Positions 1-18,653 of a stretch of DNA of 64,000 nucleotides are shown here, piece by piece. The translations under genes and the position numbers were made by a program. Source of the DNA: Desertivirga arenae (GTDB taxonomy: Bacteria > Bacteroidota > Bacteroidia > Sphingobacteriales > Sphingobacteriaceae); assembly GCF_017355785.1 (NCBI RefSeq), contig NZ_JAFEWE010000002.1, forward strand, positions 484,618 through 548,617, given 5' to 3'. How positions within the stretch are numbered: the first letter of the stretch is position 1; each line of letters starts with the position of its first letter. The notes under the pieces are model-generated. The model was not told where the DNA came from, did not search any database, and worked only from the letters and a program-made list of their open reading frames with translations.

Positions 1-256
1 CTAAGTCGGCCCCCATAACCGGTTGCAGTCTCTCCCATAAAAAAGGGACTCTGATCAAATTCAGTCCTTTCTTTTTAAAGTAATCCAGATCCGCCTCGCC
101 CGGATAAGTGTAATCTTTATTAAAGACACCTGGAATATTAGAACCAAAGTCGCCACCGGCAAGGTTAACTCCAAAGGGTTTGGATGCTGAATTTACCTGC
201 GCCTTGCTAATGGCAACAGATAGTAAGATCAATAGCGAACAAGTTATTTTTTTCAT
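1..256 (-). CDS. GH5-like glycoside hydrolase, N-terminal part (cut by window edge)
   Basis: The first 85 residues of a secreted enzyme are present; the rest lies beyond the left edge. It begins with a signal peptide (MKKITCSLLILLSVAISKAQ) and continues into FGVNLAGGDFG, then a segment with LDYFKKKGLNLIRVPFLWERLQP. An N-terminal GVNLAG followed by a lone strand ending in R-x-P-F-x-W is the usual start of GH5 cellulase/endoglucanase barrels. The catalytic glutamates are off the window, so the substrate cannot be judged. It is divergent from the apiosidase-like gene at 454, and a copy of the island's TAAAAAAGTATT motif lies 102 bases upstream of its ATG. Confidence 0.75.
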   Translation of the reverse strand, partial: MKKITCSLLILLSVAISKAQVNSASKPFGVNLAGGDFGSNIPGVFNKDYTYPGEADLDYFKKKGLNLIRVPFLWERLQPVMGADL

Positions 257-358
257 CCTTGAATGTGTGTAAGTAATTAAAAGGTATGCGGATCTTTACC
301 AGCTTGAAGATCCGGATGATTAGTTATTCAAAAGTAAAAGCTGCAGCGCGCTTTATAT

Positions 359-370
359 AATACTTTTTTA
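359..370 (-). promoter_or_regulatory. Shared TAAAAAAGTATT motif, copy 1
   Basis: An exact copy of the 12-base motif lies in the divergent gap between the GH5 gene (starts 256, minus) and the apiosidase-like gene (starts 454, plus). It is oriented with the GH5 gene and preceded by GGG on that strand. It probably is an operator or alternative promoter element, because four more exact copies precede minus-strand genes in this island. The binding factor is unknown. Confidence 0.6.
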
Positions 371-453
371 CCCGAAACTTATTTATAAACCGTATCCTCA
401 TTTATTTAAAAATCGCTCTTAGTACATTCGCTTCTACTAACGATGGATAAACC

Positions 454-1845
454 ATGAATAAAAAACACCTGCTATTTATTTGGCTTCTTCTAACACAGTA
501 CTGTAGTTATGGCCAGGCATTACGCATAAGTAACAATGGAAGATATATAGAGACAGAGGAGCACAAACCTTTTTTGTGGATCGGCGACACGGCCTGGGAA
601 TTGTTCCATAAGCTGAGGAAAGAAGAGGCATTTTACTTTTTAGAAAAGCGTAAAAAACAAGGATTTAACGTTATCCAAGCGGTTATCCTATCGGAAACAG
701 ACGGACTAAGAACCCCGAATGCTTATGGGCAACTGCCTTTTAAGGAACTGGATCCCACTCAACCAAATATCCCTTATTTTGAACTTATAGATGCTATTGT
801 AAACAAGGCGAAGTCTCTCGGAATTTACATGGTTATTTTACCCACGTGGGCGGATAAAGTACCGAACGACCGGCCAGGAAAAGGTCCTGTTATTTTCAAT
901 AATGAAAATGCTGCGGCTTATGGTAGTTTTTTAGCCCACAGGTATCCACAGAAGAACGTGATCTGGATGTTGGGCGGCGACCGGAACGTACAAAACCAGG
1001 AAGCTTTTGATATCTGGAAAGCAATGGCAGTAGCTTTAAGAAATGGCAATTCTACCGACCAGTTGATAACTTATCATCCCGCAGGGGAACAATCCTCTTC
1101 AAAGTGGTTTCAAAACGAAAACTGGATTGATTTCAACGTTTACCAGTCTGGCCATGCCCATCGTTTTATGCCTGTTTATCAATTGGCAAAAGCCGACTAT
1201 TTTAAGACCCCTGTAAAACCAAGCCTGGATGCAGAACCTGCATATGAAGATATCCCGGTTGAATTTTGGGCCTTTATGGATTTTACTAAAGAGAAAAGTG
1301 TTCCTGACGCTATTTTGGATAAGGATGGACTTCTGGTAAAGAAAGAGCATTTCAAAAAAGGTTTCTTTACCGACTATGATGTGCGGGTACATGCCTATTG
1401 GAACTTACTATCAGGGGCCTGCGGTTACACTTATGGACACAACTCGGTTTGGCAGATGTTCAGGAAGGGTGATACCCCTGTCATACCAACCTTGACGGAC
1501 TGGACTGGTGCCCTTGACCGATCGGGTGCGAATCAGATGAGACATCTGAAAAAGGTATTTACTAAATACGACTTTTCAAAGCTGGTACCTGATGAGGGAC
1601 TTATTTCCGGGCAGGGTGGAGATGACAGTACTTATATCGCGTCAGCAAGCGCGGCAGACGATTCCTACGCATTGGTCTATCTTGCCCTTGGTCAAGACGT
1701 TGTTGTAAAAAAAGGTGCAAAGCGCAGGGCCTGGTGGTTTGATCCCAGAACGGGAATAAAGTTCAGGGCCAAAGTCACGGGCAATGTCTTCACACCTCCT
1801 AGTTCAGGATTTGGTAATGATTGGTTACTTATCCTTGAGAAATAA
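454..1845 (+). CDS. Apiosidase-like (DUF4038/GH140-type) secreted glycosidase
   Basis: The 463-residue protein has a signal peptide (MNKKHLLFIWLLLTQYCSYG) and then the DUF4038 start RISNNGRYIETEEHKPFLWI with GDTAWELFHKL. This matches the (beta/alpha)8 domain of GH140 enzymes, which release apiose from rhamnogalacturonan II. Residues from about 375 to the end (YALVYLALGQDVVV, AWWFDPRTG) fit the C-terminal putative collagen-binding beta-sandwich usually attached to it. It acts in the periplasm or at the cell surface. It is the only plus-strand gene of the island and converges on the DUF3863-like gene with a 15-base gap. The family call is firm; apiose as the substrate is only inferred from family members. 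Confidence 0.8.
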   Translation: MNKKHLLFIWLLLTQYCSYGQALRISNNGRYIETEEHKPFLWIGDTAWELFHKLRKEEAFYFLEKRKKQGFNVIQAVILSETDGLRTPNAYGQLPFKELDPTQPNIPYFELIDAIVNKAKSLGIYMVILPTWADKVPNDRPGKGPVIFNNENAAAYGSFLAHRYPQKNVIWMLGGDRNVQNQEAFDIWKAMAVALRNGNSTDQLITYHPAGEQSSSKWFQNENWIDFNVYQSGHAHRFMPVYQLAKADYFKTPVKPSLDAEPAYEDIPVEFWAFMDFTKEKSVPDAILDKDGLLVKKEHFKKGFFTDYDVRVHAYWNLLSGACGYTYGHNSVWQMFRKGDTPVIPTLTDWTGALDRSGANQMRHLKKVFTKYDFSKLVPDEGLISGQGGDDSTYIASASAADDSYALVYLALGQDVVVKKGAKRRAWWFDPRTGIKFRAKVTGNVFTPPSSGFGNDWLLILEK

Positions 1846-1860
1846 AAGACAGGGAGGCAG

Positions 1861-3189
1861 CTAATGCTTATTCAATAGTCCCGGATAGTGCTTCTCTATG
1901 AGCTTTTTGTCATTTTCAGAAAGCTCTGAGAAGCTAAGCGGTTTATCCTGCTCCCTGGTTTGTTTCTGATTGATTTGCCCCAACAGGCTCCAGTTTCGCG
2001 TTAGTACCTGGGGCTCCTTTGCAGGCAGGTCGTATCTTGTAAAATCAATCACCTTAAAGGGCTCATTCTTTTGCCAGTCGCGAAGTAAGGCTAACCGAAA
2101 GTTCTTATTCATCAGCCATTTGATCTCCATGTTTCTGTCTGAACCACCGATGCCACTGCCCCTTTGAACGAACCTGTAATTAAAATCGTTGCTTTTATGT
2201 TCTTTTCTCCATTGAAGTCCAAACTCGCCCATGGTGATGAACTTCGTTTCGGGCCACCGTTCTTTCACCTGCTGAACCCAGGCAGTTAAGCCACTAACAG
2301 GAATATCCAGTGATACCTCCCAGTTGACGGTCACCCAGGCGAACCTGTTCAATTTATAGCCCTCATCGAAATGAATAGCCGTAGTATGCATCATTTCTTT
2401 CAAGCCGGTTTCTTCTCCAAACTTTCCCAGTGTTTCAATTGGGCCTACCCCAAGACGACTGTTAAACCCTTCTGCAAAGCCTTCCCTGCGTGCTGCCAGA
2501 AAATCCATGGTCCAACCGTCGAGATTAACGCAATCAATAAGATCAGACTTGCCCTGGGCTGGTTTACAGAAATGTTCGGTGGATGGATAATAGGGATAAA
2601 CTACTGAGCCTTCCCCATCCTGATTATCTATAGAATACTGGCTCCAGATATTGCCCTGACAAACATGAATATCCTCCTTCCCGGCCAGATACTTAAGATT
2701 AGCAGCAGCAAGGAAACCGGCTACCACACATTTAGGACGATATCCATTGCCAACGATCTCCGTCACTCGCGCTAATCCTTGGTGCAGATCTTTATTAACT
2801 TGTTCACGCGTGTTATAGGCATTGGAAAAGTAGGCCCCGGGAATAAATGTCACTTCATCACCAAACCGTTTGTTGTACGCCACTACAAGCTCTCTGATTT
2901 TTTTATAGTTAGCCGTTGAATCGTGCAGAGCGAGCCAGCTAAGGGCCCAGGTAATTCTTGCTCCAGGAAAGCCTTTTTGAATAGCATTTCTAAAGTTTAT
3001 AACGCGATCAGGAGTATGAAGAGATCTTTCATCTTCTCCAATATTCTGGGTTCGCCCTGCCTCGATCTGATTTACTCTTATAATAGCATTGAAGGTTAAA
3101 AACCGGTTGCCGGCTATAGTGGAAGGAGATTGAGCTTTAACAAGAAAAATGGGTAATAAAAGGAATAGGAACAGTGCAATCTTTTTCAT
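1861..3189 (-). CDS. Secreted DUF3863-like protein of unknown function
   Basis: The 442-residue protein has a signal peptide (MKKIALFLFLLLPIFLVKAQ) and begins its mature part with NRFLTFNAIIRVNQIE. That start and the length remind me of the DUF3863/DUF3864 proteins found in Bacteroidota, but I recognise this from memory only. Aromatic-rich stretches (ITWALSWLALHD, NIWSQYSIDN, LDGWTMDFLAARREGF) suggest a carbohydrate-active (beta/alpha) barrel. The activity is unknown. It lies 158 bases after the lipoprotein gene at 3348 on the same strand, without its own copy of the TAAAAAAGTATT motif, so it may be the last gene of the unit that starts with the PQQ dehydrogenase. Confidence 0.55.
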   Translation of the reverse strand: MKKIALFLFLLLPIFLVKAQSPSTIAGNRFLTFNAIIRVNQIEAGRTQNIGEDERSLHTPDRVINFRNAIQKGFPGARITWALSWLALHDSTANYKKIRELVVAYNKRFGDEVTFIPGAYFSNAYNTREQVNKDLHQGLARVTEIVGNGYRPKCVVAGFLAAANLKYLAGKEDIHVCQGNIWSQYSIDNQDGEGSVVYPYYPSTEHFCKPAQGKSDLIDCVNLDGWTMDFLAARREGFAEGFNSRLGVGPIETLGKFGEETGLKEMMHTTAIHFDEGYKLNRFAWVTVNWEVSLDIPVSGLTAWVQQVKERWPETKFITMGEFGLQWRKEHKSNDFNYRFVQRGSGIGGSDRNMEIKWLMNKNFRLALLRDWQKNEPFKVIDFTRYDLPAKEPQVLTRNWSLLGQINQKQTREQDKPLSFSELSENDKKLIEKHYPGLLNKH

Positions 3190-3347
3190 AAGAATGAGTT
3201 TTTTAATAGCAATAGATCTTTATATACTGATTGAGTTGCTCTAATAGAGGCACGCCCAGGTTCAATAAGAAGGATTGAAAATTAAGGAATGAGCCCTCTA
3301 TGGGAGAAGGCCCATCATAAACCAATTATATAGAAAATAAACCAATT

Positions 3348-4262
3348 TTACTGTTTATAGCTGCTTACAGCTTGTTCGTCGCCAATAGCCTCAGCTACTT
3401 TAGCAACGCCCTCCATATTTATCTTCAAGCCTTGTTCGGCATCAGGATGGGTTTCTTCGTTAATGATTCCGATAGGCCCTTTGTAGCCGCTATCCTTAAC
3501 CAGCTTCATCATCTTCGCTTCCTGGTCACCCTGCCCAACTGCCACTACTTTTGATGGATTGGTTCCTTTTAGTCCCATGAGGTTTACAGCATATAAGTAG
3601 GGTTTTATTTTAGGAAAGAACTGGGGGAAACGTTCTACCTGTTCTTCGGCATGATGGAAGTTATAAACGATTCCAATGTTCGGTAACTTCAGATGTTCGA
3701 TCACTGCCAGCTGATTCTCGGGTTCTCCATACCAGCCGCCATGATTATAAAGCGCTACTTTACATCCTATTTTAGCTGCTTCTGTAGCAATATACCTGAC
3801 AGGTTTGGCTATAGCTTTAATCTTCTCTTCCTGACTCATATTGCTGAGGTCAATCCCGCCAACCATGAACCAGATCTCTGTTTTCGCATTATTGCGTTTA
3901 AGTGCATCGAGGATCAATTTGATGTTGCCTTCCTTTTCAGGATCGGGGCCTGAATACAACCACCACGCCTGTAATTTAATGTTATGCTTCCTGAGCGTCT
4001 GGATCTCTTCATCAAAGGCCGTCACGTGCTTATCCCTCCAGTCATATGCCTCCATCGTTATGCCCAGCTTGTTAAGCATTTGCGCACGTTGTTCTGCATT
4101 TCGCTCTTTTACGTCAAAAGGTACAATGCACCAGGCAATAAGGTTATCTCTGGAATAAATGCTCCTTGAATTGGAGCGGGCTTTCCGGCCTGCAATACAG
4201 CCGGCAAATACTCCGGTGAGCAGGAGAAAGACTAATACGGGATGTAATTTATTCTTTAACAT
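3348..4262 (-). CDS. Lipoprotein with xylose-isomerase-like TIM barrel (sugar phosphate isomerase/epimerase family)
   Basis: The 304-residue protein starts with a lipoprotein signal ending in a lipobox (VFAGC, Cys21), so it is probably anchored in an envelope membrane. The mature part is a compact xylose-isomerase-like TIM barrel with the family's alternating strands (ITMEAYDWR, LQAWWLYSG, TEIWFMVGG, CKVALYNHGGW, IGIVYNFHHAEE, PIGIINEETHPD). The conserved acidic and His residues are those that bind a divalent metal in this fold. Known relatives are epimerases, isomerases and lyases acting on keto-sugars or inositols. It follows the PQQ dehydrogenase by 19 bases, so the two probably act on the same substrate outside the cytoplasm. 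The exact reaction is not known. Confidence 0.75.
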   Translation of the reverse strand: MLKNKLHPVLVFLLLTGVFAGCIAGRKARSNSRSIYSRDNLIAWCIVPFDVKERNAEQRAQMLNKLGITMEAYDWRDKHVTAFDEEIQTLRKHNIKLQAWWLYSGPDPEKEGNIKLILDALKRNNAKTEIWFMVGGIDLSNMSQEEKIKAIAKPVRYIATEAAKIGCKVALYNHGGWYGEPENQLAVIEHLKLPNIGIVYNFHHAEEQVERFPQFFPKIKPYLYAVNLMGLKGTNPSKVVAVGQGDQEAKMMKLVKDSGYKGPIGIINEETHPDAEQGLKINMEGVAKVAEAIGDEQAVSSYKQ

Positions 4263-4281
4263 GGTGTGTTTGATTTAACTG

Positions 4282-6414
4282 CTAGTCAGGCAATGCAAAA
4301 GCGACATAAGCATCTCCTGTTTTTCCTCCAAGCTTTCCGCCCCCGGTTGCTGCAATTACTACATATTGCTTACCCTCAACTGAATAGGTTGCAGGTGTAG
4401 CATATCCTCCGTATGGAAGCTTGGTTTCCCAAAGGATCTTGCCTGTTTTTTTATCGAAAGCCCTGAACTTTTCATCACGGGTTGCAGCAATAAATACTAA
4501 GCCTCCTTTTGTCACAATACTGCCGCCAAAATTCTCAGTTCCGGTTGTGGCCATGCCCTTCTTTTTAAGCTCCTCATATTCACCTAAGGGCACTTTCCAC
4601 TTTATCTTACCACTATTCAGGTCAAGTGCATTAAGCGTTCCCCAGGGAGGTGCAGTGGCAGGATAGCCGTCTGGGTCAAGGAACTTTTCATAACCAAGAG
4701 AACGGTATTCAGGTTTATTTTTTGCGACAACAGCGTTGGCATTTTCTTTATTGAGTAAGAAGTTGGTCAAATCAAGCAAGTCTTTCTCCTCGATCTGAGG
4801 GAAGGCAGGCATGGCATTTTTACCCTTCTTGACAATCTTCATCAGATCTTCCTGCTTATACTTTTGGTCAACCCTGGTAAGGTTAGGAATGCTTCCCTGC
4901 CCCTCACGGTTGGCACCGTGACAGCTGGGACATCCCATTTTTAGAAATACTGCTTTGCCGGGACTAAGCTTTGAGGCTTTTTCGCCCACTGGCATTTCGT
5001 TAATATCTTTCATCCGGATGTACCAGGCCAGCTCATTAGAGTTAACATACAAGACATTCTCTTTTTCATCATAAGAACCGCCACCCCATTCTGCACCACC
5101 GTGAATGCCATAGTAAAGTATTCCCTTTTTATTTGGAGGAATGAACCAGCCGGCGTCAGCTGAATTAAAAACCTTCTGGGCGTAAGCATGGGCTTCAGGG
5201 GTACGATTGGTAAGTTCATTTCCTCTGACCACTTGTCGTGCAAAAGGCTCTGGCCAGCTTACCCGTGGCTGGGTTGGATAGGCATATTCTCCGGGTAGGG
5301 TTGAGGCGGGAACAAGCACCTCTTCAACTTTTGACAGAACCTCTCCCGTGATCCTGTCAAAAAGAAGAGTATTCCCTGTTTTGGTAAGCTGTATCACCGC
5401 TTTCAGCTTTTTGCCCTTATGATTGATTGTTGCCAGAATGGGAGCAGCAGGGAGATCGAGGTCCCACAGATCGTGATGGATAGCCTGATAATGCCATTTA
5501 CGCTGACCCGTTTCTGCATCTAATGCCACTATACAGTTGCCATAGAGCTGCGCACCCTTATTGTCTGAGCGGTAAAAGTCGTCTTTAGGTTGGCCGGTGC
5601 AGAAGAATATCATTTTATTTTCCTCGTCTAATGTTATTCCGGACCAGGAGTTGACTCCCGCACCCTTTTTCCAAAAATCCTTATTGCCCCAGGTATCATA
5701 TCCAAACTCCTTGGGTTGTGGAATCGTATTGAATATCCATACCCGTCTTCCGGTCTTAACATCAAAAGCACTGACGTTAGATGGAGCGCCCCAGCTTAGT
5801 GCACCTGTTATCACCAGGTTGCCGCAGACGGTAGGAGATCCGGGTGATGTGATGGCCATCTCTGATTCAGGACGAACCAGATCCTCATTCAGGTCTACAC
5901 GGCCATTGTATCCGAAAGACTCCACCGGTTCGCCGGTATACATGTCTATCTGGTATAAATAATTGTTTGCCGTAAACAGGATACTTCCCCTCCCTCCCGA
6001 TTTCCAGTAGGCCAGTCCCCGGTTAATACCTCCCAGGCTTTCACCTTCTCTGGAAGGATTGAACCTCCACAACTCTTTTCCGTTTGTAGCATCGAGAGCA
6101 ATCACCTCGTGGGCCGGTGTAGTAACGTACATTGCTCCTCCGACAATGAGGGGATTACACTGTACATTACCGGCCATATTGCCTGAGTTATATACCCAGG
6201 CTACCTTTAGGTCTTTAACATTATCGGTATTGATCTCATCAAGCTCTGAATACTTGGTTTGTCCCGCATTTCCTCCCGCATGATCCCAGTCGACAGTCCT
6301 TTGGTAAAGCCTCCCTTTTACACATCCACTTAAAGCGATGATAAAAAGGCCCGCTGCAATAATGCGAGAGAAACCTTTAGAGGTTTGAAGATCAGGGTTA
6401 GTACTAATTCTCAT
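4282..6414 (-). CDS. PQQ-type beta-propeller dehydrogenase fused to cytochrome c, lipoprotein
   Basis: This 710-residue protein is a quinoprotein alcohol/sugar dehydrogenase-like eight-bladed propeller (VDWDHAGGN start; GSPTVCGNLVITGA; HHDLWDLDLPAAP; final GGSIVTKGGLVFIAATRDEK). An inserted c-type heme domain has MGCPSCHG, a CxxCH site near residue 495. A lipobox (IALSGC) near residue 30 predicts a lipoprotein. Relatives oxidise sugars or alcohols in the periplasm and pass electrons to the respiratory chain; glucose/quinate-type activity is a family guess. A longer reading frame begins with TTG at 6423, but the ATG at 6414 gives the better signal peptide. A copy of the shared motif sits 97 bases upstream. 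It heads a unit with the TIM-barrel lipoprotein. Confidence 0.85.
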   Translation of the reverse strand: MRISTNPDLQTSKGFSRIIAAGLFIIALSGCVKGRLYQRTVDWDHAGGNAGQTKYSELDEINTDNVKDLKVAWVYNSGNMAGNVQCNPLIVGGAMYVTTPAHEVIALDATNGKELWRFNPSREGESLGGINRGLAYWKSGGRGSILFTANNYLYQIDMYTGEPVESFGYNGRVDLNEDLVRPESEMAITSPGSPTVCGNLVITGALSWGAPSNVSAFDVKTGRRVWIFNTIPQPKEFGYDTWGNKDFWKKGAGVNSWSGITLDEENKMIFFCTGQPKDDFYRSDNKGAQLYGNCIVALDAETGQRKWHYQAIHHDLWDLDLPAAPILATINHKGKKLKAVIQLTKTGNTLLFDRITGEVLSKVEEVLVPASTLPGEYAYPTQPRVSWPEPFARQVVRGNELTNRTPEAHAYAQKVFNSADAGWFIPPNKKGILYYGIHGGAEWGGGSYDEKENVLYVNSNELAWYIRMKDINEMPVGEKASKLSPGKAVFLKMGCPSCHGANREGQGSIPNLTRVDQKYKQEDLMKIVKKGKNAMPAFPQIEEKDLLDLTNFLLNKENANAVVAKNKPEYRSLGYEKFLDPDGYPATAPPWGTLNALDLNSGKIKWKVPLGEYEELKKKGMATTGTENFGGSIVTKGGLVFIAATRDEKFRAFDKKTGKILWETKLPYGGYATPATYSVEGKQYVVIAATGGGKLGGKTGDAYVAFALPD

Positions 6415-6511
6415 AAAAGCCAATATGCCGCCTAAGCAAAGAAGGTTGTTAATAGCCTTCGTTTATCTAATGGTCAGTATCCAAAACTAGCTTTATTTCT
6501 ATCCCTAAAGC

Positions 6512-6523
6512 AATACTTTTTTA
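6512..6523 (-). promoter_or_regulatory. Shared TAAAAAAGTATT motif, copy 2
   Basis: An exact copy lies between the end of the MFS gene (6554) and the start of the PQQ dehydrogenase (6414), 97 bases upstream of the latter. It is preceded by GGC on the minus strand. Its position suggests that a new transcription unit starts here rather than reading on from the MFS gene. Confidence 0.6.
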
Positions 6524-6553
6524 GCCAAGGTTTGTAGGAAACAATCTTTTAAG

Positions 6554-7846
6554 CTACTCTAATACTAGTCCGACATCTTTTGAAACTACCTTTCCTGATG
6601 CTTTTCCTTTAAGCTTGAAATACAAAACGGTAAAGGCAATTATTAAAATTGCGGGCAGTACAGCAACATAGCGAAGGGTAGCAGCACCCGCTGCAAGTTT
6701 GATCTGAGCCCACTGGATGGCCAACACAGAACCCTCTGAAGCGTTTTTCAGCAATTCGGTGTCTGCTGCTCCACCAGCAGCGCTGCTGATCTGCTGTTCA
6801 TACACGATTCCAAAAAGAGGAAGCACAATAGATGTAGAAAGTAATCCAACGCCACCCATCACGGACATTCCTAGAGGCCCTGTTTTTGGTAATCGCTCTG
6901 ATACAAATCCGATCATTGTTGGCCAGAAAAAGCACACTCCCATGGCAAAGATGCCTGCTGCTGCAAAAGCTGAATACCCCTGGGCGATACTAAGCCATAA
7001 CAATCCGGCAAATGAAAACAATGCAGAGAAAAGTAGTAAACCTGTTGTTGACACCCTGTTTAGAATGAAGCCAGCGTTAGCCCTGCCAATGGTCATAATT
7101 CCGTTGATAAATACCAGTAAGAGTATGGATGGAACGCCAACCGTTGATAATAATTCTGCTATCCATTGGTTAGTACCTAGTTCTGTGGCTGCGGTAAGAA
7201 GCATGCAAAATATCATAAACAGGAATAGCGGACTTAAGCATGCCCGAAACATTTCCTTATCAGAAACGCCTTTGCTGACACGTTCAGACACTGGAAACCT
7301 TTGTCCGATGAACATTGCACCATAAATGAGAGTAGGCAAGACCATCACCAGCATTTGCACCTTCCAACCCGCATTTATTAACGTGAGCAAATAAGCTATC
7401 ACTCCTCCGATCACAATTCCTCCGGGAAACCAAATGTGCCAGTCGTTAATCTTTTTAGTCTTTTGCTCTGTATATAAACTGCTGACCATTGCATAACTAG
7501 CGGATTCTACAAACCCATTTCCAATTCCAACGAGCAATGTAGATGAAAACAGTGTAACGTAATTAGTTGAATAAATGGTTAAAACGATACCAATAAGGTG
7601 ACTGAAAAAAGCAATAGCAAACATCCTTCCCATTCCTATTTTATCGCAAACAGGCCCACCAACGAACATGGCAATGGTGAATCCCCAAAAGGCAGCTGAA
7701 GAAACCTCTCCGATTTCTTTCGGACTTAGGCCAAATTCGGCAGCAAGGGTTCCTAACAAATTTGCACGTATAGCAAAAGTGAGCGCCGTAACCACCAGCG
7801 CGATACTACTGGCAATAAATAATCTGTTCTTGTTAATTTCTTTCAT
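6554..7846 (-). CDS. MFS transporter, sugar-type
   Basis: The 430-residue protein has about twelve hydrophobic segments from residue 10 to 415 and the MFS loop motif GGPVCDKIGMGRMF between TM2 and TM3. It probably imports a sugar or sugar acid across the inner membrane. It is the last gene of the run isomerase, Gfo/Idh oxidoreductase, PhyH-like enzyme, MFS, and is separated from the PhyH-like gene by 142 bases containing a long hairpin. A transporter in this place suggests that the operon processes a compound taken up from the periplasm, perhaps the product of the glycosidases and PQQ dehydrogenase nearby. The substrate cannot be read from the sequence. Confidence 0.85.
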   Translation of the reverse strand: MKEINKNRLFIASSIALVVTALTFAIRANLLGTLAAEFGLSPKEIGEVSSAAFWGFTIAMFVGGPVCDKIGMGRMFAIAFFSHLIGIVLTIYSTNYVTLFSSTLLVGIGNGFVESASYAMVSSLYTEQKTKKINDWHIWFPGGIVIGGVIAYLLTLINAGWKVQMLVMVLPTLIYGAMFIGQRFPVSERVSKGVSDKEMFRACLSPLFLFMIFCMLLTAATELGTNQWIAELLSTVGVPSILLLVFINGIMTIGRANAGFILNRVSTTGLLLFSALFSFAGLLWLSIAQGYSAFAAAGIFAMGVCFFWPTMIGFVSERLPKTGPLGMSVMGGVGLLSTSIVLPLFGIVYEQQISSAAGGAADTELLKNASEGSVLAIQWAQIKLAAGAATLRYVAVLPAILIIAFTVLYFKLKGKASGKVVSKDVGLVLE

Positions 7847-7925
7847 AATTGATCTTTAGTTGAATATGGTTAGTTTGAAAAGGCAGAAGCGTGTATGAAA
7901 CAGGGAATATAGGAAAGAACAACAT

Positions 7926-7972
7926 CCTGTAACTGCTGAAGAAAGTAGGGCTTTTCTTATAGCGGTTACAGG
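7926..7972 (-). other. Long hairpin inside the sugar operon
   Basis: An imperfect inverted repeat has outer arms 7926-7937 and 7961-7972 (12 pairs including one G-U) and inner arms AAGAAA/TTTCTT (7939-7944, 7953-7958) around an 8-base loop. No T-run follows it on the minus strand, so it is not a classical terminator. It may stabilise or process the mRNA between the PhyH-like and MFS genes and so set their relative expression. Confidence 0.5.
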
Positions 7973-7988
7973 GTGTTTGCAAGATAGG

Positions 7989-8882
7989 CTATTGCAATGA
8001 AAATTCTTCAGGGAAATTATATTCCCTTTTCCAGGTTTCAGCCATGTCTGGATATTGCCTGCGACATTCCAGATATTCTTCCATCATTTTTTTCATGGTG
8101 GGACTGAGACGCTCGAGGTATTCGGGAGTAAGAAGCTCGGAGTTGAGAAGGTAAAAATGCCAGGTTGGAGGATAAGCCGCACTATGGTAGCCCATGTGTA
8201 AAGTACGTCGGGGAACTTTCATCTTTTCGGTAAAGCCACGATGGATGAGGTTATTATTATAGAGTACCGCCTGACCTGCTTTTAATTGAACAGGAACCCC
8301 TCCCGGCATTTCAACACCTACGGGAGCGTAATGCTTAGAGCCACCAAATGCCGCGTTTTCTGCTGCGTTATTAGGGCGATTATGACTTCCTGGAACGATC
8401 CATAAGGAGTTTTCTTCTACCAATGGAAGATTGATCTGCACGCTGTTATGGAAGCGCTCAGGAGAGAACAACCAATCCTCGATTTCATTCTGCGGGATCT
8501 GAATGACGTCGCGATGCCATCCGAGGGAATATTCTGTACCTACGTTTGCAGCCAGAATGGATGCATTGTTAACGATCAGGTTAGGACCGATCAGCTCTTC
8601 GACCGCCTTAAGGATCACCGGATGATGAAAGGCATGCAAAATAGGCTCTGTACCCGGCTTCGTCAACAAGTGGAAATAATACTGACGTGCCTCCTTAGCA
8701 AAATCAGAAATATTATCTCCGAGGTGCTGGAAGGAAGAACTCCGCTTCTCCGTACTTTCAGCTTTAATTTTAGGGCTGATCAATTCGTCCATGATCTCTC
8801 TGAACTCATCGATCTCCGGCTGGGTAAGCACATCAATAATTACATAGCCGTCCCTCAGGAACTTCTCTTTGTTTGATTCCAT
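7989..8882 (-). CDS. Phytanoyl-CoA dioxygenase (PhyH) family Fe(II)/2-oxoglutarate enzyme
   Basis: The 297-residue protein carries the facial triad of PhyH enzymes: HRD in LGWHRDVIQ, and the distal His in NNNLIHRGF, followed by RRTLHMGY whose Arg would hold 2-oxoglutarate. The fold start (KFLRDGYVIIDVLTQPEIDEFREI) is typical. Such proteins hydroxylate small molecules; those in sugar operons have no established substrate. Its ATG overlaps the end of the Gfo/Idh gene by 50 bases, so the two are very likely translated from one mRNA. It probably acts in the cytoplasm on the same metabolite as its neighbours. Confidence 0.85.
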   Translation of the reverse strand: MESNKEKFLRDGYVIIDVLTQPEIDEFREIMDELISPKIKAESTEKRSSSFQHLGDNISDFAKEARQYYFHLLTKPGTEPILHAFHHPVILKAVEELIGPNLIVNNASILAANVGTEYSLGWHRDVIQIPQNEIEDWLFSPERFHNSVQINLPLVEENSLWIVPGSHNRPNNAAENAAFGGSKHYAPVGVEMPGGVPVQLKAGQAVLYNNNLIHRGFTEKMKVPRRTLHMGYHSAAYPPTWHFYLLNSELLTPEYLERLSPTMKKMMEEYLECRRQYPDMAETWKREYNFPEEFSLQ

Positions 8883-10047
8883 TTTCTTCTCTATTAAGTG
8901 TTATTTGTTGTTTTGTTTCTGCAGAAGCGACTCCCGCCTCTAGTATTTCCAGTGTTTTCAGTCCGTCGTTGAAGTTTGGACTTATTGAGCCTTCTCCCTG
9001 CACTGCAATTAGAAAGTCAACTGCGGCGTGGATAAAGGAATGTTCATATCCGATGATATGACCAGGAGGCCACCAGCTTTTCACATAGGGATGGGAAGGC
9101 TCTGTGGCAAGGATTGTTCGAAAACCTTGCAGATCGCCTGAATCCTCATTAGAAAAATATTGCAGTTCATTCATCCGCTCCAGATCAAACGTGATGCTGC
9201 CTTTGCTTCCATAAATTTCAAAAGACAACTTATTTTTTCTGCCTGTGGCGAACCTGGTTGCTTCAAAAGATCCTACTGCTCCATTTTCGAATTGCACCAG
9301 CATTAATGCCGCATCTTCAACCGTTACTTCGCCCATTTCATCTCCCTTACTTTCTGCCTGAAGATTACCGGACGTTGATTCGTCGGCAATTGGTCTTTCC
9401 TTTATGAAGTTAGTTTGCAAGGAAGTGACAGAACTTATTTCACCCACAAGGAACCGGGCAAGATCAACGCAATGGGAGTTAAGGTCCCACTGGGGACCAG
9501 CCTGGGCCGTTTCTTTCTGCAATTGCCAGGTAAGTGGAAATTCAGGGTCTACGATCCAGTCCTGCTGGTAAGCAGAACGCCAATGAAAGATGCGTCCTAA
9601 ACGACCTTCTTCAATCATTCTCTTCGCTAAGGAAATTGCGGGAGTACGCCGATAATTGTGGTTTAAGTAGTGAACTACACCGTTATCCTCACAAACCCGT
9701 AGCATTTCCTCCGCCTGCCTGCTGGTCATTGCTAAGGGTTTTTCGCAAAAGATATGCTTGCCTTCCTTTGCAGCAGCGATAGCAATATCATAATGCAGAT
9801 GCTGAGGCAAGGCGATGTCTATGATATCGATATCCTGGCGGGCAATCAGCTTCCGCCAGTCTGTTTCTGTTTCCTGCCAGCCCCATTTATTTGCGAAGTC
9901 CTGCAGTGATTCCTGATGACGGCCGCAAGCAGCTTTAAGTACCGGCTGTGCTGGAACATCAAAAAATAAAGGTGCTTTGATCCATGCATTGCTATGGGCT
10001 CTGCCCATGAATTTGTAACCGACAATGCCTATGTTCAACTTATGCAT
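8833..10047 (-). CDS. Gfo/Idh/MocA family NAD(P)-dependent oxidoreductase
   Basis: The protein (404 residues from the ATG at 10047) opens with the Rossmann motif NIGIVGYKFMGRAHSNAW and has the family hallmark CEKPLAM near residue 95. A C-terminal alpha/beta domain (residues about 130-380) would bind the sugar. Family members oxidise or reduce sugars, inositols and derivatives, often at C3. A frame extension with TTG at 10065 exists, but the ATG at 10047, overlapping the previous stop by 8 bases (ATGCATAA), fits the Rossmann start better. It sits between a TIM-barrel isomerase and a PhyH-like dioxygenase, so a cytoplasmic multi-step sugar conversion is likely. The substrate is unknown. Confidence 0.88.
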   Translation of the reverse strand: MHKLNIGIVGYKFMGRAHSNAWIKAPLFFDVPAQPVLKAACGRHQESLQDFANKWGWQETETDWRKLIARQDIDIIDIALPQHLHYDIAIAAAKEGKHIFCEKPLAMTSRQAEEMLRVCEDNGVVHYLNHNYRRTPAISLAKRMIEEGRLGRIFHWRSAYQQDWIVDPEFPLTWQLQKETAQAGPQWDLNSHCVDLARFLVGEISSVTSLQTNFIKERPIADESTSGNLQAESKGDEMGEVTVEDAALMLVQFENGAVGSFEATRFATGRKNKLSFEIYGSKGSITFDLERMNELQYFSNEDSGDLQGFRTILATEPSHPYVKSWWPPGHIIGYEHSFIHAAVDFLIAVQGEGSISPNFNDGLKTLEILEAGVASAETKQQITLNREENGIKQREVPEGRLCNY

Positions 10048-10906
10048 AAGTAAGCCTGTCTGCAATTCCCCATAACACCTCTAAACTGCGCTTAACCACC
10101 AGCTCTTCCTGATTACCATATTCCGGATGAAGAAAATCGATCTCTACAGCTAAAAAGCCTTCGTAATTATGCTGATGGAGGATTTGAGCAAGACGGGCAT
10201 TATCAATAAGACCTTCGCCTGTTGGCACACAGGAAAAGAAATACCATTCATTTACAGGTACCCCTTTTACCGGGCGAAGATCTTTTATATGCGTTGCAAA
10301 AACATAAGGCGCCAGCTTCTCCATGGCTTGAATAGGATCGTCAAGAACCCGGAGAAAATTTCCGCTGTCGAAATTCACACCGAAATGGGAAGAGTTTACA
10401 TTGGTCACCAATTGCAGAATTTCGTCAGAATTGTAGTCAATATGATTTTCGACTGCGAGTTTGATGCCGTATTTCTCAGCAAATCTGGTGGCTTCAGCGA
10501 ACATCCGGCTTAACTTCTCCAATTGTGGCTGATGATCTTCAAAACGAAACTGGAGGCTGCTGCCGACAACACGCATTACCTTTGCTCCTATCTGATCAGC
10601 ATATTCAATATGCTCTATCATTTCTTCAAATGCCCGTTCATTCCTGCCTCCCTCTAGTCCGTCCGGATGCCCCCAGGCATATACCCTGTCCATTCCTGAC
10701 AGGTCGAGATGATGTTTTATACCTTCCAGGTATTCTTTATCAAATCGTGGAATGAAACATGATTCGAGAGAAACTCCCTCAATATTCAAATCATCGGCTT
10801 TTAATAAAAATTCTTCAAAAGAAAGCTCTTTCTCCGGCTTCTTCTGCCCGGGATACACTTCACCGAAAAGTCGATGAAAACAGTAGCTGTCAATTCCTAC
10901 TTTCAT
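10040..10906 (-). CDS. Sugar phosphate isomerase/epimerase-like TIM barrel protein
   Basis: The 288-residue protein is a xylose-isomerase-like TIM barrel of usual length and no signal peptide, so it is cytoplasmic, unlike the lipoprotein relative at 3348. Metal-binding strand ends are visible: IEGVSLES, KLAVENHIDYNSDE, HFGVNFDSGN, VFATHIKDLR and LAVEIDFLHPE. Relatives include hydroxypyruvate isomerase, tagatose/psicose epimerases and keto-sugar dehydratases. It is the first gene of the operon and a shared TAAAAAAGTATT motif lies 61 bases upstream. Its last bases overlap the Gfo/Idh start. Confidence 0.85.
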   Translation of the reverse strand: MKVGIDSYCFHRLFGEVYPGQKKPEKELSFEEFLLKADDLNIEGVSLESCFIPRFDKEYLEGIKHHLDLSGMDRVYAWGHPDGLEGGRNERAFEEMIEHIEYADQIGAKVMRVVGSSLQFRFEDHQPQLEKLSRMFAEATRFAEKYGIKLAVENHIDYNSDEILQLVTNVNSSHFGVNFDSGNFLRVLDDPIQAMEKLAPYVFATHIKDLRPVKGVPVNEWYFFSCVPTGEGLIDNARLAQILHQHNYEGFLAVEIDFLHPEYGNQEELVVKRSLEVLWGIADRLTYA

Positions 10907-10967
10907 GATGGCTTGTAAGTTTTATTGGTTACTCTTGTAAATCTCAGTGAATTAGCTTCATTTAAAT

Positions 10968-10979
10968 AATACTTTTTTA
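10968..10979 (-). promoter_or_regulatory. Shared TAAAAAAGTATT motif, copy 3
   Basis: An exact copy lies 61 bases upstream of the isomerase ATG that heads the four-gene sugar operon. It is preceded by GGC on the minus strand. The same 61-base distance is seen for copy 4, which argues for a fixed promoter geometry rather than chance. Confidence 0.65.
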
Positions 10980-11031
10980 GCCATAACTATTTAAATTCCA
11001 GCCTTTTTTACCTTTATTCAAAGGAGGTAAA

Positions 11032-11066
11032 AACAAAAAAGCCGCAGATCCTTACCTGCGGCTTTA
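11032..11066 (-). terminator. Intrinsic terminator of the GH5 gene
   Basis: Arms AAGCCGCAG (11039-11047) and CTGCGGCTT (11056-11064) form a 9-bp stem with an 8-base loop. On the minus strand it is followed by TTTTTTGTTTTT. It lies 21 bases after the stop codon of the GH5 gene at 11087. Confidence 0.85.
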
Positions 11067-11086
11067 AATTGTATGCAACTGAGCTT

Positions 11087-12184
11087 TTATTTATCGTATT
11101 TAAATTTTCCCTGGAAAACATCTCTGAAAAACTTGCCCTGACCGGTGGGCTCATAGTTCCAGTTTTCGATCATTTGAGGGATCCACTCGGGGTCGAACAC
11201 CCAAACCACCCAGGAAATTCCTTTTTTATTAAAGTAGTTAACGATAGACTTACCATAAACGCCGTCATCTTTCAGATTAACATCTTCATCGCCTTTCATA
11301 AAGCCCAACTCTGTTGCTACCACCGGATATTTATCAGCGACAAATCCGAAATCAAGTTCCCACTTAGGCTCTCTTGGCACGGCGCGCTTACCCGGATAGG
11401 GATGGGTAACATAAGCGATACCTTCACGGGCAATAGGATTTTCGCGAACTGGCGTAAGGTCGTATGCCCAATTGAAACCGGCAACAAGAGGAATAACGTT
11501 TTTATTATAAACAAAGACAAGGTCGATCAGCTTTTCCATCAATTGTTTCCATTCCTCCCAGCTTGCTGTACCGTATTGTCCTTCGTAGGTGGTGGGTTCA
11601 TTGAACAGCTCATAAAAGGCAACTGTGGGTACATCTTTATAATGCTCGGCAATCAATCTCCAAAAGTTGAAGGTTTCCTTCTTAGAAGTATTATGCATGT
11701 CCTGCGAAAAGATCTCCATTGGAAGATTACCAATGGCGTGCCAATCAATGATCACATAAATACCCAATTCCGAGCACCAGTTTACCGCTTCGTCAAGAAG
11801 TTTCACATATTCTACTACTCCGCGCTGATGGAAGGCTACGGGATGTACAGGAATGCGAATTACATTCGCGCCCCAGCTTTTTATAACCTCGAAGTGTTTT
11901 TTGTTCCAGTGACCATCCTTAACTAACTTGTCGGGATCCGAGATGGAAAGCCCTTTAAATACGATGATTTTACCACTTTCATCCACAAAGGTATTCCCCT
12001 TTACTTTGATATAACTCATCTTTTTGATGCCTTGTGGTAATTTGTAGGGATGGAGAACGTCTATATGCCACCAATCTTTTTTCACGGCATTGCTTTGAAG
12101 TCCGGGTTGGGCATTAGCTACTATTGTAAGACACAGTAATACAAGGGGAATCAGCTTTCTAATTTGGTTTATCATATTTGGCAT
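11087..12184 (-). CDS. GH5 family glycoside hydrolase (cellulase-like)
   Basis: The 365-residue protein has a signal peptide ending near VANAQ and a GH5 (beta/alpha)8 barrel. Visible landmarks are GLSISDPDKL, VIRIPVHP, VIIDWHAIG, the acid/base in YELFNEP, the aromatic THPYPG strand and the nucleophile in VATELGF. These are the two catalytic glutamates of clan GH-A. Substrate is probably a beta-glucan or beta-mannan, which the sequence alone does not decide. The ATG at 12184 is used; a second one at 12175 is possible. The gene stands alone between a terminator and a copy of the shared motif 61 bases upstream. Confidence 0.88.
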   Translation of the reverse strand: MPNMINQIRKLIPLVLLCLTIVANAQPGLQSNAVKKDWWHIDVLHPYKLPQGIKKMSYIKVKGNTFVDESGKIIVFKGLSISDPDKLVKDGHWNKKHFEVIKSWGANVIRIPVHPVAFHQRGVVEYVKLLDEAVNWCSELGIYVIIDWHAIGNLPMEIFSQDMHNTSKKETFNFWRLIAEHYKDVPTVAFYELFNEPTTYEGQYGTASWEEWKQLMEKLIDLVFVYNKNVIPLVAGFNWAYDLTPVRENPIAREGIAYVTHPYPGKRAVPREPKWELDFGFVADKYPVVATELGFMKGDEDVNLKDDGVYGKSIVNYFNKKGISWVVWVFDPEWIPQMIENWNYEPTGQGKFFRDVFQGKFKYDK

Positions 12185-12245
12185 TTTTGATATTCAAAGG
12201 AATAGAAATACCCTAGAAACAGACAGTATTTAATTGATTATTTGC

Positions 12246-12257
12246 AATACTTTTTTA
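12246..12257 (-). promoter_or_regulatory. Shared TAAAAAAGTATT motif, copy 4
   Basis: An exact copy lies 61 bases upstream of the GH5 ATG at 12184 and is preceded by GGA on the minus strand. Spacing to the start codon is the same as for copy 3. Confidence 0.65.
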
Positions 12258-12292
12258 TCCCTCATCTCGCCTGTATCGTAACTCTCTTTTTG

Positions 12293-13843
12293 TTATGGCC
12301 AGTCAATTACTTCAGAAACTATTTCTGCAAACAGCTCCCTTAGCCTATTTGAATTAAAATCAGAGGATTGCAATCCTAAAATACTTTGCGCAACTCTTCC
12401 CTTTCCATAGGGATAGGTCCACGCGGCGGGAATGCTTTTTCCGGAATGATTGTATTTAAAAGAGAAAAAGGTGGTTACCGGCATCTCACCTTGGAGCATC
12501 AATCCGTCATAAAGGTTCAATTGCAGCTTTTTGAATCGAGGCTTGTTTAAGCGCCCTTCAATAGTTACTGCCTCTCTTTTATTGCTATACTGGTCTGTCA
12601 CTATCTCCCGTCTGAAAATGGACCTGTATTCGGGCCAGCCTGCTGTGTTTATATCAGATGGACGACCAGAAGAAGGATAATGAAATACAAGAGAGATCAG
12701 CGCGCCGCCATTTTTTAAATAGTTCTCCAGAACCTCTTTCGAATACTTATTGATCCCGGAAGTGTCCTTACGGTTCAGGACAAGAAGATTATAGTCGCGA
12801 AGGTTGTATTGCCAGATATCATTAATATTAGAGCTTACATCTACCAAAATCCTTCTATCCGTTTCTAATGCCTTTTTCAGGTTGGCTGTATTAGATCCTT
12901 CTTTTACGATTCCCGGTTCTGTAATTAAAAGCGCTTTCAGTGTTTTATGATAAATATGACTGGTTACCTCTTCATCATTAAAAAATCTTGCCTCTACCCC
13001 CTTTTCAGGAATTTCAACTCCTGATGCCCAAGCGATACCATTAAGCATAAACTTTCGATAATCTCCATTTTCCCAATTCGAATAATAGTGATTCATAGTT
13101 GAACAAAAAGCCCTGCCTCCATCAGTCCTGTTTAAAGCCCATGCAACTACATTACCATTTTCTAATTCACTCCCCAATTGAGGGACAGACAGTAAAGGTC
13201 TAAAGTCTTCCAAGTGCTGAGAAAACCTCATATTATAATAGAATTCGTCTCTTATATTGAAAGGTCTAACTCCTCTATGTATGCTATGATTGGTATTGAG
13301 AAGCTTTATTTCTGCTTCTGTTTCTTTAAGAGCAGAATAAGGTTTTCTTTTACCCGTTGAGTCTTGCCAGTCGAAATACCCTCCTGCCCAATTTAGGAGG
13401 GTTTGGCCAAGAGGGTAAGTGGCAAAAGTGGAAAAATGTAACAAAGAGAGGCCGCAACCTCTTTTTATTTGCCTTTCCATCACCTTCATTCGATCGGGAG
13501 TAAAAAAAGGGACATCACCGAAATTGTAACCATCATTACCGTCGGAAGCAAAAAGAATGAGGTTTGCATCTTCAAGCGTCTTCTCGTCCTGGGGCCAGCC
13601 ATTCAGATGCACTTCTGTTTCTACAGCTCCGGCTACATTAGAATTATCGAGAAGGGTTTTAATAAGTCGCACCGTCTTGATGTATTCATGCGTTCCGGCG
13701 GGATGAGATTTCTCACCTGCAATTAATACGATCTTTCGCTTAGCATTAGATCCTGAAACTGCTGCTTCAGATACCTTTATCAATGGAAAGAACATTAGAA
13801 TGAGAAGCAGCACCTTCGTAAACCTTTCGATCATTTGCCTCAT
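12293..13843 (-). CDS. ThuA-like domain secreted protein
   Basis: The protein (516 residues from the ATG at 13843) has a signal peptide (ERFTKVLLLILMFFPL) and then a ThuA domain: KIVLIAGEKSHPAGTHEY, EVHLNGWP, NLILFASDGNDGYN, GCGLSLLHFSTF and AWALNRTDGGRAFCSTMNHY. ThuA domains resemble class I glutamine amidotransferases without the full triad and often occur in sugar operons. The C-terminal half (VDVSSNINDIWQYNLRDYNLLVLN, NGGALISLVFHYPSSG, GKGRVAQSILG) looks like a second flavodoxin/GATase-like fold. In-frame starts exist at GTG 13870 and at ATGs 13855, 13843 and 13834; I chose 13843 for signal-peptide shape, with low certainty. The reaction is unknown. Confidence 0.75.
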   Translation of the reverse strand: MRQMIERFTKVLLLILMFFPLIKVSEAAVSGSNAKRKIVLIAGEKSHPAGTHEYIKTVRLIKTLLDNSNVAGAVETEVHLNGWPQDEKTLEDANLILFASDGNDGYNFGDVPFFTPDRMKVMERQIKRGCGLSLLHFSTFATYPLGQTLLNWAGGYFDWQDSTGKRKPYSALKETEAEIKLLNTNHSIHRGVRPFNIRDEFYYNMRFSQHLEDFRPLLSVPQLGSELENGNVVAWALNRTDGGRAFCSTMNHYYSNWENGDYRKFMLNGIAWASGVEIPEKGVEARFFNDEEVTSHIYHKTLKALLITEPGIVKEGSNTANLKKALETDRRILVDVSSNINDIWQYNLRDYNLLVLNRKDTSGINKYSKEVLENYLKNGGALISLVFHYPSSGRPSDINTAGWPEYRSIFRREIVTDQYSNKREAVTIEGRLNKPRFKKLQLNLYDGLMLQGEMPVTTFFSFKYNHSGKSIPAAWTYPYGKGRVAQSILGLQSSDFNSNRLRELFAEIVSEVIDWP

Positions 13844-13907
13844 AAAGTAAATCATTAAAGCTTCTACCACCAGGATCCTAAAAACACCATTTTTTCAGTC
13901 TCAAACT

Positions 13908-13919
13908 AATACTTTTTTA
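13908..13919 (-). promoter_or_regulatory. Shared TAAAAAAGTATT motif, copy 5
   Basis: An exact copy lies between the efflux operon (ends 13939) and the ThuA-like gene. It is 64 bases upstream of the start chosen at 13843 and preceded by TGC on the minus strand. The downstream spacing is close to that of copies 3 and 4. Confidence 0.6.
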
Positions 13920-13938
13920 GCAGAATCAGATAGGATTT

Positions 13939-15384: not shown

Positions 15385-15395
15385 CTGGTGTTTCT

Positions 15396-18581: not shown

Positions 18582-18653
18582 TTCCTTAAATTTTAGTCAA
18601 AAGAATTCATGTCCCCTTTAAAAAGAGGTTGTTAAATACCATAAGGGCATTAC

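What the first reader, a model, noticed from the sequence alone, without database searches (positions are those of the whole stretch)
359..13919. Exact 12-base motif shared by five transcription units of the carbohydrate island
TAAAAAAGTATT occurs exactly at 359-370, 6512-6523, 10968-10979, 12246-12257 and 13908-13919, always on the minus strand and always upstream of a minus-strand gene. Four of five copies are preceded by GG plus one base. Two copies lie exactly 61 bases before the ATG, a third 64 bases before the start I chose. The motif links a GH5 gene, the PQQ dehydrogenase unit, the isomerase-Gfo/Idh-PhyH-MFS operon, a second GH5 gene and the ThuA-like gene. It is not a palindrome, so it is more likely an alternative sigma-factor or AraC/response-regulator site than a LacI-type operator. 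I know no described regulator for it.
Basis: seen in the sequence. Interest (0 to 1): 0.8.

Follow-up and report, generated by a model that had tools for sequence, protein, structure and literature searches.

The report
AraC-type sites in a sugar island
The repeated 12-base motif is most likely the promoter-side half of a binding site for an AraC-family regulator encoded just outside the window, and the same regulator-plus-site pair recurs in many related bacteria, often beside mannan-type sugar genes, so it marks a conventional sugar regulon for which no description was found.

Summary
All five exact copies exist (0.08 expected). Two more lie just upstream of the window, so seven of the genome's 14 exact 12-mers fall in one 31-kb island, on one strand, each ahead of a gene of that strand. 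The longer GNTAAAAAAGTATTR hits only those seven places in 6.19 Mb.

The island encodes an AraC-family protein about 16 kb outside the window, transcribed away from the first motif-bearing gene. In Sphingobacteriaceae 52 of 59 examined loci of its relatives carry the motif within 1.3 kb of araC (scrambled consensus: mean 1.3, max 8), often ahead of SSF, GH130 or SusC genes. The motif sits 21-23 bases before a TAnnTTTG -7 box (40 of 52; other bins 0-4), lacks a -33 TTTG in 51 of 52, and has a weaker direct repeat 21 bp upstream (z 4.7; 5.8 in a second set). That is AraC-operator architecture at an activator-dependent promoter. It recurs outside the family.

So the regulon idea and the AraC option are supported; the alternative-sigma option is not. 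New member of a known kind. Binding, inducer and exact polysaccharide are inferred.

The parts
329..393 (-). Promoter of the GH5 gene that runs out of the window: core motif 359-370, GN at 371-372, -7 box TACTTTTG 329-336 (gap 22), predicted distal half-site 379-393
   Evidence: distal half-site placed by the 21-bp offset only
1..256 (-). 5' part of the GH5 (Cellulase, PF00150) gene driven by the first copy; the whole gene is C23:483857-484873
6482..6546 (-). Promoter of the PQQ-dehydrogenase unit: core 6512-6523, -7 box TAGTTTTG 6482-6489 (gap 22), predicted distal half-site 6532-6546
   Evidence: distal half-site by offset only
4282..6414 (-). PQQ-dependent dehydrogenase with cytochrome c domain (start taken as the ATG 97 bases after the motif)
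3348..4262 (-). Xylose-isomerase-like TIM barrel protein, same unit by spacing
1861..3189 (-). DUF3863/DUF3864 protein, probably same unit (about 160-base gap)
10938..11002 (-). Promoter of the isomerase-Gfo/Idh-PhyH-MFS operon: core 10968-10979, -7-like box GAGATTTA 10938-10945 (gap 22), predicted distal half-site 10988-11002
   Evidence: sites before the orthologous gene in G002 and G145; distal half-site by offset only
6554..10906 (-). Operon by spacing: isomerase 10040-10906, Gfo/Idh (best NCBIfam match levoglucosan dehydrogenase, below its cut-off) 8833-10065, PhyH 7989-8882, MFS 6554-7846
12216..12280 (-). Promoter of the second GH5 gene of the window: core 12246-12257, weak -7-like box TCTGTTTC 12216-12223 (gap 22), predicted distal half-site 12266-12280
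   Evidence: site before the orthologous gene in G145, its box three mismatches off; distal half-site by offset only
11087..12184 (-). GH5 (Cellulase, PF00150) gene
13879..13942 (-). Promoter of the ThuA-like gene: core 13908-13919, weak -7-like box TGTTTTTA 13879-13886 (gap 21), predicted distal half-site 13928-13942
   Evidence: distal half-site by offset only
12293..13843 (-). ThuA-like gene (start taken as the ATG 64 bases after the motif, one of several possible)

Best explanation
The motif is the promoter-proximal half-site of a direct-repeat operator bound by an AraC-family regulator encoded at C23:468018-468893 (window -16599 to -15724), inside the same island. The operator is GnTAAAAWAGTATTR, with a degenerate copy 21 bp (two helix turns) upstream, and lies 21-23 bases upstream of a TAnnTTTG-type -7 box, where it takes the place of the -33 element. 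A dimer on the two half-sites would recruit RNA polymerase with the primary sigma factor to promoters that are weak without it. The inducer is probably a disaccharide imported by the SSF symporter and cleaved by the GH130 phosphorylase, such as mannosyl-glucose or mannobiose. Seven promoters in 31 kb would thus be switched on together: SSF-GH130, SusC/SusD with esterases, a GH5 and GH78, two further GH5 genes, the PQQ-dehydrogenase unit, the isomerase-Gfo/Idh-PhyH-MFS operon and ThuA. Shown by computation: the sites, their fixed promoter geometry, the direct repeat in relatives, and the linkage of site and araC over many genomes. Inferred: binding, activation rather than repression, operon limits, inducer, and the polysaccharide (a beta-(gluco)mannan type).
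For: Seven island copies and no other place in the genome for GNTAAAAAAGTATTR. 52 of 59 loci have the 15-mer (<=1 mismatch) within 1.3 kb of araC; 30 scrambles mean 1.27, max 8. -7 box at gap 21-23 in 40 of 52 sites, other bins 0-4; all 7 own sites at <=2 mismatches, other bins 0-3. -33 TTTG in 1 of 52. Half-site repeat at -21: z 4.74, 5 of 3000 column permutations as high there and 21 of 3000 at any offset; in 37 sites from 63 loci that I classed by record title as outside the family, z 5.83, 0 and 3 of 3000. Site plus box in 33 of 60 AraC-positive genomes against 6 of 91 others (p 3e-11), while the reversed pattern shows no such link (14 of 60, 30 of 91); 36 of 41 sites in positive genomes lie within 25 kb of araC. 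Outside the family 8 of 15 loci against 0-2 for scrambles; named loci, in and out of the family, 42 of 80 against 0-1. Sites stand before the same genes (SSF, SusC, GH5, isomerase operon) in relatives G002, G110 or G145.
Against: No binding or expression data. Seven of 59 family loci and 38 of 80 named loci lack a site under the rules used. In the seven own sites the -21 repeat is weak: only the third-best offset. Five of seven own -7 boxes are two mismatches off. In the family as a whole the composite pattern (47 hits) is no commoner than its reversed control (about 50 by my count of the table), perhaps because the reversed pattern resembles ATGAAAAAA gene starts; only position separates them. 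The same-genus genome G001 has no AraC relative at 1e-60 yet two hits of GNTAAAAAAGTATTR, and two of five in G002 lie outside its island. In this genome the GH26 genes and an epimerase of the classical mannan set lie elsewhere (C12), beside a 43%-identical AraC paralogue and without the motif.
Confidence: 0.87

Rival explanations
1. The motif is the -35 element of an ECF or other alternative sigma factor, and the spaced downstream box its -10 element.
For: Fixed distance to the downstream box; TTTG at -33 in only 1 of 52; in the own genome five of seven boxes depart from TAnnTTTG by two bases.
Against: In relatives the downstream box is the TAnnTTTG of the Bacteroides primary sigma factor (one passage of PMC10620806). 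A second, weaker copy of the motif lies 21 bp upstream. The motif travels with araC; no sigma or anti-sigma family was hit among the 30 ORFs of the region that I scanned with Pfam (not all ORFs were scanned).
Confidence: 0.04
2. The same sites are bound by the AraC protein but act mainly as a repressor, or as both repressor and activator.
For: Some loci carry two sites 74-79 bases apart (L105, L106, L112, L113, L127, L147), which could loop DNA.
Against: Position next to the -7 box in place of a -33 element fits a class II activator. An AraC regulator of a Zobellia carrageenan locus is a positive regulator (PMC5698469 passages).
Confidence: 0.06
3. Another regulator, for example a hybrid two-component system encoded elsewhere, binds the motif; the linkage to araC is by shared gene neighbourhood only.
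For: Beta-mannan loci of Bacteroides ovatus and Muricauda have a hybrid two-component regulator (PMC5217682 and PMC9860051 passages), and such regulators have AraC-type DNA-binding domains (PMC3878776 passages).
Against: The site persists beside this araC where the neighbouring genes differ (SSF-GH130, or SusC/SusD), and no site with up to two mismatches lies within 1.5 kb of the AraC paralogue that keeps SSF and GH130 neighbours.
Confidence: 0.06
4. Chance similarity of A-rich upstream DNA.
For: The 12-mer is A-rich and occurs seven more times in the genome; its reversed control occurs 10 times.
Against: 0.08 expected in the window; fixed promoter geometry; conservation beside araC in other genomes.
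Confidence: 0.01

Closest known systems
AraC-type hybrid two-component (HTCS) regulons of Bacteroides thetaiotaomicron (PMC3878776; passages and section 9 seen)
   Same: AraC-type DNA-binding domain; predicted operators are direct repeats with an average 21 bp between sites; control of polysaccharide loci.
   Different: The protein here is 291 aa with no sensor kinase or receiver found; I did not compare the motifs letter by letter, as that paper's logos are in figures. Its Table 2 of 11 further regulators lists RhaR as the only AraC-family one and a GntR protein (ManR) for mannose.
AraC-type regulator FG28_RS02325 of the Muricauda sp. MAR_2010_75 beta-mannan locus (PMC9860051; passages seen)
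   Same: AraC protein in a locus with GH26, GH130, epimerase, symporter and SusC/D that responds to beta-mannans.
   Different: No operator is given in the passages seen; orthology of that protein was not tested. A relative in the marine Leeuwenhoekiella polynyae was found (L289, 50% identity, site with one mismatch and perfect box).
E. coli AraC/RhaS-type activators
   Same: RhaS is the best NCBIfam match that spans nearly the whole protein (AryK scores higher, on the DNA-binding part only). Direct-repeat half-sites next to the core promoter: recalled.
   Different: Match is far below the RhaS cut-off (69.3 against 288 bits); other motif and sigma factor.
CgrA (ZGAL_3159), carrageenan locus of Zobellia galactanivorans (PMC5698469; passages seen)
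   Same: AraC-family protein in a polysaccharide locus; its deletion shows a positive regulator.
   Different: Other substrate; no operator in the passages seen.

Membership tests
AraC/XylS family regulon (regulator and operator) | Regulator with C-terminal AraC helix-turn-helix domain | tested here: met
   HTH_18 2.4e-23 and HTH_AraC 1.2e-13 in the island protein; both in 17 of 17 aligned relatives
AraC/XylS family regulon (regulator and operator) | N-terminal cupin-like ligand-binding domain | tested here: inconclusive
   AraC_binding found in 6 of 17 relatives (best 1.2e-4) at E up to 1, not in the island protein itself; RhaS model aligned over residues 23-284
AraC/XylS family regulon (regulator and operator) | Operator of two direct-repeat half-sites about 21 bp apart | tested here: met
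   Best offset -21 in 52 family sites (z 4.74) and in 37 other sites (z 5.83); in the seven own sites only the third-best offset
AraC/XylS family regulon (regulator and operator) | Site abuts or overlaps the -35 (-33) region of target promoters | tested here: met
   21-23 bases from the -7 box in 40 of 52 sites; TTTG at -33 distance in 1 of 52
AraC/XylS family regulon (regulator and operator) | Ligand-dependent binding and activation | not testable with these tools
   needs gel shift and expression data
[quoted passage not shown]
   291-aa protein; at E up to 0.001 Pfam finds only the two helix-turn-helix models
ECF sigma regulon | Own -35/-10 pair in place of a TAnnTTTG box | tested here: not met
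   TAnnTTTG box (<=1 mismatch) at fixed distance in 40 of 52 family sites, 2 of 7 own sites perfect
ECF sigma regulon | Linked sigma/anti-sigma genes | tested here: inconclusive
   none among 30 scanned ORFs; not all ORFs of the region were scanned
LacI-type operator | Palindromic site | tested here: not met
   The core is not its own reverse complement and the repeat found is direct
Beta-mannan utilisation locus | GH130 phosphorylase, symporter, SusC/SusD, endo-acting GH, esterases | tested here: met
   GH130, SSF, SusD, GH5 enzymes, SASA and GDSL families in the island by Pfam; SusC by sequence inspection. Activities not tested.
Beta-mannan utilisation locus | GH26 mannanases and a 2-epimerase in the locus (typical, not obligatory) | tested here: not met
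   In this genome GH26 lies only at C12, epimerase-family genes at C12 and C2; both are in the araC locus of the relative G080

The most novel reading that the evidence does not exclude
One AraC protein and one nearly invariant operator-promoter module (GnTAAAAWAGTATTR, about 22 bases, TAnnTTTG) has governed beta-mannan-type loci across the Bacteroidota since before their main families split, and in the Desertivirga group it has captured an oxidative side path (PQQ dehydrogenase, levoglucosan-dehydrogenase-like Gfo/Idh protein, xylose-isomerase-like proteins, PhyH, ThuA): the PQQ unit changes operon between species yet stays behind the same kind of site, which points to an undescribed oxidative or 3-keto branch of glucomannan breakdown.
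Probability: 0.35. Interest if true: 0.65.

Novelty: new member of a known kind. Interest (0 to 1): 0.5.

Why it matters
It proposes an operator for an AraC regulator that recurs in Bacteroidota, often beside mannan-type genes, so that regulon membership can be read from sequence. It also ties oxidoreductases of unknown role (PQQ dehydrogenase, Gfo/Idh, PhyH) and ThuA to a polysaccharide island. No description of the motif or of this regulator's operator turned up in nine literature searches of the held library; subscription papers and databases such as RegPrecise were not searched.

Tried and rejected
Alternative sigma factor, LacI operator, hybrid two-component regulator and chance were each considered and rejected or downgraded, as set out under the rivals.

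Results that did not favour my reading: the reversed composite pattern has about as many hits (about 50, by my count of the table) as the true pattern (47) in 151 genomes, so raw counts prove nothing and only the link to araC does. GNTAAAAAAGTATTR is found in 111 of 151 family genomes, so in other genomes it is often background. Near-matches elsewhere in the own genome: 54 besides the seven; only the 23 with loci were inspected; 1 of 23 (L172) has a box with at most two mismatches. Searching the motif letters in papers gave 23 papers; the 20 listed were judged unrelated from title and start of abstract.

Rows dropped: of 66 AraC matches, 60 were fetched; the own locus and five others (in G016, G028, G072, G084, G141) were not. 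The 59 used as family loci leave out the own paralogue (L149); several come from one genome (G003, G015, G088 and G104 give more than one). The 52 sites used for geometry are the best site of 54 loci that had one by the 12-mer rule, less two poor ones (L136, L144).

The promoter scan, structure prediction and fold search were not used. In one search the label GH merges GH130 and one GH5 reference, so no GH130 count is cited from it. The named loci overlap in part with the family loci (L225, L237 and L272 have the contig lengths of G002, G142 and G101); therefore used only the 63 loci whose record titles I judged not Sphingobacteriaceae. Two of these are titled Planctomycetota and Anaerolineaceae (L294, L295), probably misbinned contigs; L295 is among the 37.
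Full report
Observation. The whole genome (6.19 Mb, 43 contigs; the window is contig 23, 484618-548617) holds 14 exact copies; the reversed word occurs 10 times. Seven of the 14 lie in one 31-kb stretch of contig 23 (467901-498536), all on the minus strand, each ahead of a minus-strand gene; two of these seven are just upstream of the window. Each of the other seven lacks the G two bases before the core, the purine after it, or both. Asking for both, GNTAAAAAAGTATTR, leaves the seven island sites and nothing else in the genome, control 0. This longer pattern was fitted to the island sites, so the independent tests are those in other genomes below.

The island. Pfam scans of 30 ORFs of the region and inspection give, along the minus strand from the far end: ThuA; GH5; isomerase-Gfo/Idh-PhyH-MFS; PQQ dehydrogenase-isomerase-DUF3863; GH5; a symporter; SusC-SusD-surface glycan binding protein-GDSL-GH5-SASA-GH78; SSF symporter-GH130. 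SusC and the symporter before it were named by sequence inspection, not scanned. A GH140-like gene lies on the plus strand. A 291-aa AraC-family protein lies at C23:468018-468893, transcribed away from SSF, with the first motif copy between them. On the other side of ThuA follow RND efflux genes without a copy.

Linkage with araC. In 151 genomes of the family 60, the own one included, have a relative of this AraC at E <= 1e-60. I fetched up to 20 kb around 60 of the 66 matches, one of them the 43%-identical paralogue of the own genome. With the consensus GNTAAAAWAGTATTR, which was drawn from these loci, 52 of 59 have a site (<=1 mismatch) within 1.3 kb of the middle of araC; 30 scrambled versions gave a mean of 1.27, max 8. 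The paralogue, left out of the 59, has no site with up to two mismatches within 1.5 kb, although it sits beside SSF and GH130 genes 81% and 79% identical to those of the island. The composite of site plus -7 box was found in 33 of 60 AraC-positive and 6 of 91 other genomes (Fisher p 3e-11); the reversed pattern shows no such link (14 of 60 and 30 of 91, p 0.27), although its total is similar. Of 41 composite sites in positive genomes 36 lie within 25 kb of araC.

Promoter geometry. In 40 of 52 family sites a TAnnTTTG box with at most one mismatch lies 21-23 bases after the core; the other 19 three-base bins hold 0-4. In the seven own sites all seven have a box with at most two mismatches in that bin (two perfect, five with two), other bins 0-3 of 7. 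TTTG/TAnnTTTG is the -33/-7 consensus of the Bacteroides primary sigma factor (one passage of PMC10620806). A TTTG at the -33 distance is present in 1 of 52 sites: the motif occupies that place. Sliding the motif's own matrix along the flanks gives one outstanding second position, 21 bases upstream: z 4.74, reached by 5 of 3000 column-permuted matrices at that offset and by 21 of 3000 at any offset. In 37 sites from 63 loci that I classed by title as outside the family, scored with the family matrix, -21 is again first with z 5.83, reached by 0 of 3000 (3 at any offset). In the seven own sites -21 is only the third-best offset, so the distal half-site is weak here. Direct repeats with an average of 21 bp between sites are what was predicted for the AraC-type hybrid regulators of B. 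thetaiotaomicron (PMC3878776, passages); that AraC itself is like this is recalled.

Reach. A class-wide search found the protein in 24 of 395 genomes at E <= 1e-75; of 15 loci outside the family 8 have a site with at most one mismatch (30 scrambles: 0-2). Within 1.5 kb of araC 42 of 80 have site and box with at most one mismatch each; 20 scrambles gave 0-1. The other 38 do not; 10 of them pass a looser rule of two mismatches in all. The window's genus is taken as Desertivirga because the contig of locus L225 has the length of contig 20 of the same-genus genome G002 (inference).

Function. Around araC in relatives SSF, GH130 and SusC genes recur, and in G080 (L099) two GH26 genes and a 2-epimerase that best matches cellobiose 2-epimerase, below its cut-off: the set of a beta-mannan pathway. 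A Muricauda beta-mannan locus has an expressed AraC-type regulator too (PMC9860051 passages). In this genome GH26 and one epimerase-family gene are at a second locus on contig 12 beside the AraC paralogue, so for the island itself a beta-(gluco)mannan-type substrate is likely (GH130, GH5, esterases) but not proven. The same genes carry sites in relatives: SSF in G002, G110 and G145; SusC in G002 (about 2 kb upstream), G110 and G145; the GH5 beside the GH140-like gene in G002 (one mismatch), G110 and G145; the isomerase operon in G002 and G145; the second GH5 in G145 (weak box). The PQQ unit follows GH130 behind the SSF site in G110 and G145, follows MFS in the isomerase operon in G002, and has its own site in the window: it changes operon but stays in the regulon. 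No equivalent of the ThuA site was seen in the stretches fetched.

Verdict. The regulon is real by comparative evidence, its regulator is very probably the AraC protein of the island, and the mechanism is most likely ordinary class II activation at promoters lacking a -33 element. Binding, direction of control, inducer and substrate remain to be shown. New member of a known kind; no description was found in nine searches of the held papers.

Noticed in passing
window 329-336 and 10938-10945; L005, L006, L090-L093, L305-L309: The -7 boxes differ by gene: the GH5 gene beside the GH140-like gene has a full TAnnTTTG in the own genome and in G002, G065, G110 and G145, while 9 of 11 SSF, SusC and isomerase promoters of the own genome, G002, G110 and G145 have a (G/C)AnnTTTA form. 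This may set basal expression of one enzyme against strict induction of the rest.
   Followed up: partly
L090-L148, 33-52 bases after the core motif: Many family promoters share AACCA/ACCAA just after the -7 box: 17 of 52 start it 38-52 bases after the core, with more at 33-37; four other 15-base bins hold 0-3. Possibly the start of the transcript.
   Followed up: partly
L149 (G000:C12:332978-352977): A second SSF-GH130-epimerase-GH26 locus in the same genome has an AraC paralogue only 43% identical, with differences in what I recall as the recognition helices, and no copy of the motif near it.
   Followed up: partly
L105, L106, L112, L113, L127, L147: Some araC loci carry two sites 74-79 bases apart, about seven helix turns.
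   Followed up: no
window 454-1845: An apiosidase-like (GH140-like) gene on the plus strand diverges from the GH5 promoter at 359; the same divergent pair is found in G110, G145, G002 and G065, but no exact copy of the motif in the window lies on the plus strand.
   Followed up: no
window 13939-19784: An RND efflux set (OEP, ACR_tran, HlyD families) directly follows the island without a copy of the motif.
   Followed up: no
L295, L294: Relatives of the AraC protein on contigs titled Anaerolineaceae and Planctomycetota; L295 has a one-mismatch site with a perfect box. Misbinned Bacteroidota contigs or transfer.
   Followed up: no
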